Source of the DNA: Sulfurospirillum diekertiae
Lineage (GTDB): Bacteria; Campylobacterota; Campylobacteria; Campylobacterales; Sulfurospirillaceae
DNA length: 64,000 nt
Reading direction: 5' to 3'
NCBI RefSeq assembly: GCF_002162315.1
Contig: NZ_CP021416.1
Location: 1,872,207 to 1,936,206 of the forward strand
In this document: positions 1,050 through 2,468 of the stretch, one piece after another
Numbering within the stretch: position 1 is the first letter of the stretch
How the letters are laid out: each line of letters starts with the position of its first letter
Notes under the pieces: model-generated
What the model was told of the DNA's origin: nothing
Database searches by the model: none
The model's input: the letters and a program-made list of their open reading frames with translations, nothing else
Position numbers and translations under genes: made by a program

Positions 1050-1125
1050 AGAAGGGGGTCAGTTACCACCTTAAAACACCCTAAAAATATTAATAAATCA
1101 TAACCATTATTTTGTATTTTTTCCT

Positions 1126-2122
1126 TTAAGCAACATTGGAATTTTGAGCCACCATCCCACAATGAGCCTGATAGATTTCACTTGAATAACCTTGGTTGGA
1201 ATGAAAGAGTGCTCTAGCAATAATAATCAATTTTTTCATAACAGCAATTTGTATCAAAGTCGTATGTTTACCTTTTTCTTTAAGTCTGTCATAGAAACAT
1301 TTCATCTCTTCATTAAAACGAATCGTTACCATTGTCCCCATAAATAATGACCTTCGATACAGTTTATTACCCGCTTTTGAAATGCGTGTTTTTCCTCTAA
1401 CCGAAGTACCTGAGGTTTTTTCAATTGGGTCAAGTCCTGCTAAAGAGATAATCTGTTTTTGATTGGCATTGGGATATTTTAGAAAAAGATGGATTAACGC
1501 AATCGTTGCAATATCGCCAAGTCCTTTAATGGTTTGGATACTTTGGTATTTCAACGCTAATTTACTATCTTTGGTGATGAGTCTTTTTATTTCATCGATC
1601 GTATGCTGTTCTTTTTGTTTAAAGGCTTTTTTTTAAAGTTGCAGTACTCTCTTTATGCTGCAGTTTTTCTAAGTGATTGCTTGTTTGGACTCTTTGTTTT
1701 ACTAATAGTTGGTAATAGCTCATCAAGTCATTTATTTGCTCTACAATCACATCAATCACAGGAATATGAATCTCTTCTTCTTTTGCCAGCATTCCTGCAT
1801 GACAGAGCATCCTTGCATCTACTTTATCGGTTTTATTACGAATCGATAGCGCTTTAGCAAAGTTATGCGAAGCTTTTGGATTGATCTTAAAGACTCGAAT
1901 GTGTTTATTGGCACAAAAGAGTTCTAGGGTACTGCTATAACTTGATGTTGGTTCGTAAACAAAAACGAGGGAATCGTGTTCTTTTTTATAAAGTTTTTTG
2001 AGTTTAGAAAATAACTGCGTAAAGCCTTTAACGGTATTGGCTATTTCTATCTCTAGCTCACTTTGTGGGATAAACACACTCACAGTTGACTTAGAGACAT
2101 CCAATCCGATAAAATTATCCAT
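1126..2122 (-). pseudogene. IS110-family transposase, frameshifted
   Basis: Start is ATG at 2122 with GGAGG 7 bases upstream. The N-terminal RuvC-like domain carries the DEDD residues: D8 in IGLDVSKS, E57 in YEPTSSY, D99 and D102 in KTDKVDARM. That frame stops at 1619, just after an A8 run on the coding strand (T8 at 1627-1634). Removing one base from the run restores a continuous protein into the C-terminal transposase_20 domain, which has IKGLGDIA and AGLDPIEKTSG-type motifs and ends at 1126. The break may be a real inactivation, a sequencing insertion, or expression by slippage on the A-run. A -1 shift would hit a stop, so a standard -1 programmed frameshift is unlikely. Confidence 0.8.
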
Positions 2123-2288
2123 GATAAACCTCCATGACATGATTGGAGAGTTTGGTAGGCAAGAGGATAATTCCTCTTGCTGATGATTCAACCTTATCGC
2201 ACATTAACTTCGCCTCGTACAATACAGTCTAACCTCAAAGTTGACTTTGTTACCACTCAAGTTTTTAGTGCAATTACCTAACTGACCC
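2123..2288 (-). ncRNA. candidate IS110 bridge RNA in transposase leader
   Basis: IS110 elements are known to encode a guide (bridge) RNA in the non-coding end upstream of the recombinase. This leader contains a perfect 9-bp hairpin (arms 2159-2167 and 2172-2180, loop TAAT) and a 5-bp hairpin with a 4-base loop (2236-2249), and it is bounded by the inverted repeat at 2279-2288. Position and structure fit a bridge RNA. I did not identify the target- and donor-binding loops, so this is a structural and contextual inference. Confidence 0.45.
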
Positions 2289-2468
2289 TCAAGCTAATTC
2301 TATTTTTTAAGATAAAAGAACCGCTCTGGGCTAAACCCAGCATCTTAACATCCCAAACTCTATGAGTAACTGTATAACTTTTTGGCTTTTTTCATTATAC
2401 GAGGGATAAACTTTTAACTTTTTTATCATTTAACCTTTTATATATAAAGACTCAACATTACTAAAATA
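2289..2468. other. intergenic region between IS110 element and sirtuin gene
   Basis: No gene is seen. A 5-bp hairpin with a 5-base loop (CTGGG/CCCAG arms, 2326-2340) lies just outside the right inverted repeat and could be part of the insertion target or of the element end. The remainder is AT-rich with T-runs near 2390-2430. Confidence 0.4.

What the first reader, a model, noticed from the sequence alone, without database searches (positions are those of the whole stretch)
2123..2345. IS110 leader with strong hairpins: candidate bridge RNA
Upstream of the recombinase lie a 9-bp hairpin (2159-2180), a 5-bp hairpin (2236-2249) and the inverted-repeat end, in the place where IS110 elements encode their guide RNA. 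The element also has subterminal 10-bp repeats as in IS1111, so it may mix traits of both branches.
Basis: partly seen in the sequence, partly recalled or inferred. Interest (0 to 1): 0.55.

Follow-up and report, generated by a model that had tools for sequence, protein, structure and literature searches.

The report
Guide RNA of a decaying IS110
The leader of this jumping gene very likely encodes a guide RNA of a type described in 2024, with four short guides that match its insertion site and its own two ends; it is a good new example of a known system rather than a new kind, and its own recombinase gene is frameshifted.

Summary
The leader is very likely the bridge RNA of an IS110-group element, on the minus strand of a chromosome of the genus Sulfurospirillum. 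The element runs from 2403 (LE) to 1063 (RE), 1341 bp, with a CT core at each junction.

All four guides are present in canonical order: LTG 2328-2336, RTG 2282-2288, LDG 2249-2256, RDG 2214-2223. The target is a dispersed repeat, GTTTAGCC-CT-GACCCC, copies of which flank RAYT (Y1_Tnp) genes. Across 14-18 elements (the window and relatives at 40-58% protein identity), LTG, RTG and LDG follow their own flanks (0 of 20,000 permutations each); RDG support is weak (446 of 20,000). A two-loop fold covaries (28 of 45 pairs change on both sides).

The 9-bp hairpin (2159-2180) is conserved; the 5-bp hairpin (2236-2249) is not. The '10-bp subterminal repeat' is no IS1111 STIR: one copy lies half outside the element. 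It is RTG plus a 3-nt handshake guide, complementary to the right junction.

A covarying hairpin also covers the recombinase's ribosome-binding site, as reported for ISPpu9. No transcript was tested. Known mechanism, new member.

The parts
1063..2403 (-). IS110-group element, 1341 bp, from the left core CT (2402-2403) to the last RE base; right core CT at 1061-1062
   Evidence: Ends from alignment with other insertions and comparison with empty repeat copies
2404..2422 (-). Host target, left half (AAAAGTTAAAAGTTTATCC; consensus ...GTTTAGCC)
   Evidence: Same sequence occurs dispersed and empty across the genus
1051..1060 (-). Host target, right half (GACCCC...)
   Evidence: 31 of 39 distinct empty copies continue as CTGACCCC within 1 mismatch; 7 of 7 right junctions start GAC[CT] after the core
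2394..2399 (-). TATAAT, possible -10 box of the bridge RNA; no good -35 seen
   Evidence: Direct reading of LE; the consensus scan called no promoter here; function inferred
2328..2336 (-). [quoted passage not shown]
2282..2288 (-). [quoted passage not shown]
2279..2281 (-). Handshake guide TTA of the target-binding loop, complementary to TAA at the RE end
   Evidence: handshake concept from PMC11208158 (passages)
2249..2256 (-). LDG, GTGGTAAC, equals the RE end plus first core base
2214..2223 (-). RDG, ATTGTACGAG, complementary (one G-T) to core plus LE, CTCGTATAAT
   Evidence: repeat I2; covariation weak
2291..2326 (-). Stem-loop between LTG and RTG (target-binding loop)
   Evidence: Helix 2
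2196..2274 (-). Donor-binding loop with its closing stem (2268-2274/2196-2202) and inner stem (2243-2246/2226-2229)
   Evidence: Helices 3, 4, 6
2159..2180 (-). 9-bp hairpin downstream of the donor loop
   Evidence: (I4), helix 7
2126..2153 (-). Hairpin that pairs AAACTCTCCA with TGGAGGTTT, covering the recombinase ribosome-binding site
   Evidence: Helix 8
2353..2361 (-). AGAGTTTGG, could pair with 2147-2155 as an alternative to the ribosome-binding-site hairpin
   Evidence: I3; not supported by covariation
1619..2122 (-). Recombinase N-terminal part, DEDD_Tnp_IS110 (PF01548), stops early after a frameshift
1126..1632 (-). Recombinase C-terminal part in another frame, Transposase_20 (PF02371)

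Best explanation
The leader encodes a bridge RNA. When the element is excised as a circle, transcription from the LE (TATAAT at 2394-2399) would give an RNA with two loops. The first loop (LTG, RTG) would pair with both strands of a RAYT-associated repeat, GTTTAGCC-CT-GACCC. The second (LDG, RDG) would pair with the element's own circle junction, GTGGTAA-CT-CGTATAAT. The IS110 recombinase bound to this RNA would swap strands at the CT core, which inserts the element into the repeat. Shown here by sequence: boundaries, guides, covariation of LTG, RTG and LDG, fold, target. Inferred from IS621: transcription, binding, strand exchange, circle. The window copy itself lacks an intact recombinase frame.
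For: Target and core: 7 left and 7 right junctions compared with empty repeat copies give a CT core. Guides match in canonical order. LTG with own flank scores 95 of 112 (14 elements) against a shuffled mean of 66.4; RTG 111 of 119 (17 elements) against 84.4; 0 of 20,000 shuffles each, with and without wobble. LDG equals RE in 18 of 18. Fold: 97.7% of 872 cells paired, 28 of 45 pairs with changes on both sides, slid controls 27-38% paired. Protein of the intact relative L004: NF033542 'IS110 family RNA-guided transposase' above cut-off; best solved relative IS621, E 2.9e-27.
Against: No transcript or binding data. RDG/LE covariation is weak (106 of 126 against 101.5; 446 of 20,000; LE ends hardly vary). 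Some single elements fit no better than others' flanks: LTG of L080 (5 of 8) and L088 (4 of 8), RTG of L083 (5 of 7) and L087 (4 of 7). L005's left flank does not match the repeat well. LE starts and guide anchors were partly chosen by eye. No Rfam family matched at its gathering score, and none usefully below it. 15 of 39 elements examined showed no LDG motif and were left out.
Confidence: 0.93

Rival explanations
1. The leader is only a structured 5'-UTR that restrains recombinase translation; no guide RNA is made.
For: A covarying hairpin covers the ribosome-binding site (helix 8; in 17 elements 0 of 20,000 shuffled pairings bind as well as the true ones). ISPpu9 has such a 5'-UTR (PMC8450116, abstract).
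Against: It does not explain guides that follow flanks outside the element. Both functions can coexist.
Confidence: 0.04
2. The element is an IS110/IS1111 intermediate with real subterminal inverted repeats.
For: A 10-bp inverted repeat GGGTCAGTTA/TAACTGACCC exists in the window (direct reading).
Against: Half of one copy is host DNA; the longest exact inverted repeat between the true ends is 5 bp. LE 281 nt, RE 63 nt.
Confidence: 0.01
3. The hairpins are chance or leftover structure in a dead element.
For: The window's recombinase is frameshifted; the 5-bp hairpin is not conserved; one LTG position no longer matches the window's own flank.
Against: The fold covaries in 20 leaders and guides follow flanks across elements.
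Confidence: 0.02

Closest known systems
IS621 bridge RNA system (IS110 group; PMC11208160, PMC11208158)
   Same: LE-encoded RNA with LTG-RTG-LDG-RDG order, CT core, handshake guide, DEDD plus Transposase_20 recombinase, REP-type target
   Different: Recombinase distant (99 bits, E 2.9e-27); own guides; target is a repeat of Campylobacterota; covarying hairpin over the recombinase ribosome-binding site
ISPpu9 of Pseudomonas putida (IS110 family; PMC8450116, abstract)
   Same: Inserted in REPs; 5'-UTR structure that likely includes the transposase ribosome-binding site
   Different: ISPpu9 regulation also involves two sRNAs (Asr9, Ssr9), which were not looked for here
IS1111 group with seekRNA/bridge RNA (PMC11208160 passages; PMC11187229 search listing)
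   Same: DEDD recombinase, RNA-guided
   Different: IS1111 elements carry the RNA in a long RE and have STIRs of 7-17 bp; neither holds here

Membership tests
IS110 group, bridge RNA type | DEDD_Tnp_IS110 (PF01548) plus Transposase_20 (PF02371) | tested here: met
   both in L004, one in each of the two window fragments, all above cut-off
IS110 group, bridge RNA type | Long LE, short RE, RNA in LE | tested here: met
   LE 281 nt; RE 63 nt after the stop codon; guides in LE
IS110 group, bridge RNA type | Two internal loops with four guides that match target and donor around a short core | tested here: met
   RDG covariation alone is weak
IS110 group, bridge RNA type | RNA expressed and bound by the recombinase | not testable with these tools
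   No expression or binding data
IS110 group, bridge RNA type | Promoter formed across the RE-LE circle junction | tested here: inconclusive
   TATAAT in LE; no -35 seen by eye in the junction printed; the scan covered only the inserted state
IS1111 group | Subterminal inverted repeats of 7-17 bp | tested here: not met
   Longest exact inverted repeat between ends 5 bp
IS1111 group | RNA in a long RE | tested here: not met
   RE 63 nt; guides in LE
RAYT-associated REP (the target) | Dispersed repeat, two inverted copies flank a RAYT gene | tested here: met
   Inverted copies about 0.8 kb apart around a Y1_Tnp gene in L022; a homologue of that gene at 10 of the 24 loci L019-L042
RAYT-associated REP (the target) | NCBIfam model REP_Tyr_transpos | tested here: inconclusive
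   63.6 bits against a cut-off of 80
RAYT-associated REP (the target) | Palindromic repeat with a conserved head | not tested
   Not examined

The most novel reading that the evidence does not exclude
The leader is a two-state RNA: 2147-2155 pairs either with 2353-2361, closing the guide-RNA domain and freeing the ribosome-binding site, or with the 2126-2134 strand, hiding that site, so that guide-RNA folding and recombinase translation exclude or license each other.
Probability: 0.15. Interest if true: 0.5.

Novelty: new member of a known kind. Interest (0 to 1): 0.25.

Why it matters
It adds a Campylobacterota clade of natural bridge RNAs with readable guides, shows handshake complementarity in natural sequences, and extends REP-type targeting by IS110 elements to a RAYT repeat in this group. 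It changes no principle.

Tried and rejected
IS1111-like ends: rejected after fixing the boundaries. A first guess that the left 17 bp were element sequence, then a core of CC, and that the 18-mer was a promoter box, was dropped once empty repeat copies showed CT as the core and a Y1_Tnp gene between inverted copies. AATAG near 2300 as RTG: dropped for GGGTCAG. Long-range stem (2353-2361/2147-2155): complementarity exists, but 1,738 of 20,000 shuffled pairings are as good (14 elements), so it is kept only in the novel case. Wobble as the main kind of guide mismatch: 8 of 29 LTG mismatches fit, not convincing. Rfam: no match at gathering score, four chance-level ones with E up to 5. Plasmid collection: no match.

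Weak or faulty tests of mine: the hairpin-arm test is partly circular (arms were chosen by complementarity, and the finder took other hairpins in some rows), so I rely. In one search L081 was wrongly counted in the RTG test with an empty guide; one search repeats it without L081. In one search L081 was misread (contig start) and counted as two misses, and L086 had no reading and was left out.

Full report
What was checked. The finding places a candidate bridge RNA at 2123-2345, upstream of an IS110 recombinase on the minus strand. The recombinase starts at 2122. It reads as two fragments in different frames that hit PF01548 and PF02371. Against L004, L005 and L010 the window copy is a net 20 nt shorter at an A-run near 1630, which shifts the frame; L004 and L005 are intact. 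A DNA search of the window's own genome found this copy and one 180-bp piece; the protein search adds a distant IS110 relative at 30% identity. The genus is taken as Sulfurospirillum because the contig of G014 has the length and the match position of a named contig of Sulfurospirillum sp. UBA4058.

Boundaries. In one search, 7 of 24 genus genomes had a DNA match. Seven left and seven right junctions were read. The left flank AAAGTTAAAAGTTTAGCC is shared by 6 of 7 left junctions within 2 mismatches; L005 differs. It is also a dispersed host motif: 217 places with at most 1 mismatch in 24 of 24 genomes, element-flanking ones included, against 3 for the reversed control (summed from the table). 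Of 39 distinct copies in the loci L019-L048, none is filled by the element and 31 continue as CTGACCCC within 1 mismatch; 8 diverge. Comparing empty and filled copies, the left junction keeps GTTTAGCC-CT and the right keeps CT-GACCCC, so the core is CT, as in IS621 (PMC11208158, passages). The element runs from 2403 to 1063. The exact 15-mer TTTAGCCCTGACCCC occurs 61 times in 19 of 24 genomes, reversed control 0.

Target. In L022 two inverted copies about 0.8 kb apart flank a Y1_Tnp gene. A homologue of that gene lies at 10 of the 24 loci L019-L042; the other loci are other copies of the repeat. RAYT genes are described as always flanked by two inverted REPs (PMC2817692, abstract passage). The NCBIfam REP transposase model scored below its cut-off, and I did not test the repeat for a palindrome, so 'RAYT-associated repeat' is the safer name. 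IS110 elements that target REPs are known: IS621, ISPpu9, ISPpu10, ISPa11, ISRm19 (PMC1525189, passages).

Guides. By the published convention (PMC11208160, passages and section 5) the leader holds LTG GTTTAGCCC, RTG GGGTCAG, LDG GTGGTAAC and RDG ATTGTACGAG in that order. The window's own left flank has one mismatch to the LTG (T for G). It is complementary to TAA-CT-GACCC, the right junction. That is what handshake pairing predicts for the strand-exchange product (PMC11208158, passages). Across 17 elements the two handshake bases follow the RE end in 30 of 34 positions against a shuffled mean of 24.5; 38 of 20,000 shuffles are as good.

Covariation. I examined 39 elements: the window, 26 of the 42 loci and 12 loci of earlier searches; most of the other loci are fragments or duplicates. 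24 had an LDG motif; 15 did not and were set aside (L094 has masked bases there). Of the 24, six share guides with another one and four are cut by a contig end, which leaves 14 for LTG. LTG: 95 of 112 (wobble allowed, register within 1 nt for every pairing), shuffled mean 66.4, 0 of 20,000; without wobble 83 against 49.9, 0 of 20,000. RTG: 111 of 119 in 17 elements, mean 84.4, 0 of 20,000; in 12 distinct guides 78 against 57.2, 0 of 20,000. LDG equals RE in 18 of 18, shuffled mean 128.4 of 144, 0 of 20,000; the search pattern fixed five of the eight letters, so only three could vary. RDG: 106 of 126, mean 101.5, 446 of 20,000, weak. Single elements against the reading: LTG of L080 and L088 and RTG of L083 and L087 score no better than against other elements' flanks. 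LE starts and anchors were partly chosen by eye, which favours true pairs to an unknown degree.

Fold. Twenty leaders were aligned. RNAalifold gives two loops, a 3' hairpin and a hairpin over the ribosome-binding site. Counting pairs: 97.7% of 872 cells paired (shuffles 85.4%, slid controls 27-38%), 28 of 45 pairs with changes on both sides (shuffles 18.1), covariation score 0.485 against 0.250; the number of further pair types does not exceed shuffles (57 against 56.3, 238 of 500). The structure came from the same alignment, which favours it, and related sequences can beat such shuffles.

Ribosome-binding-site hairpin. AAACTCTCCA (2144-2153) pairs with TGGAGGTTT (2126-2134). In 17 elements true strand pairs bind better than shuffled ones (0 of 20,000 as good). 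The same strand could pair with AGAGTTTGG at 2353-2361, but this is not supported by covariation (1,738 of 20,000 as good, 14 elements). [quoted passage not shown]

Verdict. A bridge RNA of an IS110-group element: new member of a known kind. A search for papers holding two of 'Sulfurospirillum', 'IS110', 'bridge RNA' found 21; 8 were listed, none of which holds Sulfurospirillum. ISfinder could not be searched, so the element may already have a name. That Campylobacterota promoters often lack a -35 box is recalled, not from a call.

Noticed in passing
G007 loci L006, L011, L016-L018: A close copy of the element is split at window position about 1947-1955 by an insertion of about 1.3 kb with a 9-bp overlap, and a second IS110 relative (42% identity) lies next to it.
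   Followed up: no
L089 and L090: The same leader (271 nt, identical) in a contig filed as a Nanoarchaeales archaeon MAG and in one of a Campylobacteraceae MAG; possibly a binning error.
   Followed up: no
L080, downstream of the recombinase: Two RE ends (GGTGGCAACTGACCC) 38 bp apart, as if the right end had been duplicated.
   Followed up: no
L083 (same contig as L054) and L102, right ends: RE followed by CTCGTA, which resembles an LE start rather than the expected target; L083's RTG fits it poorly.
   Followed up: no
L002, G000:C1:840713-840892: A 180-bp remnant of a related recombinase gene, 79% identical, in the window's own genome.
   Followed up: no
window 1619-1640: The frame is lost at an A-run where relatives carry two GCCTT repeats about 21 bp apart, a place that looks prone to slippage.
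   Followed up: partly
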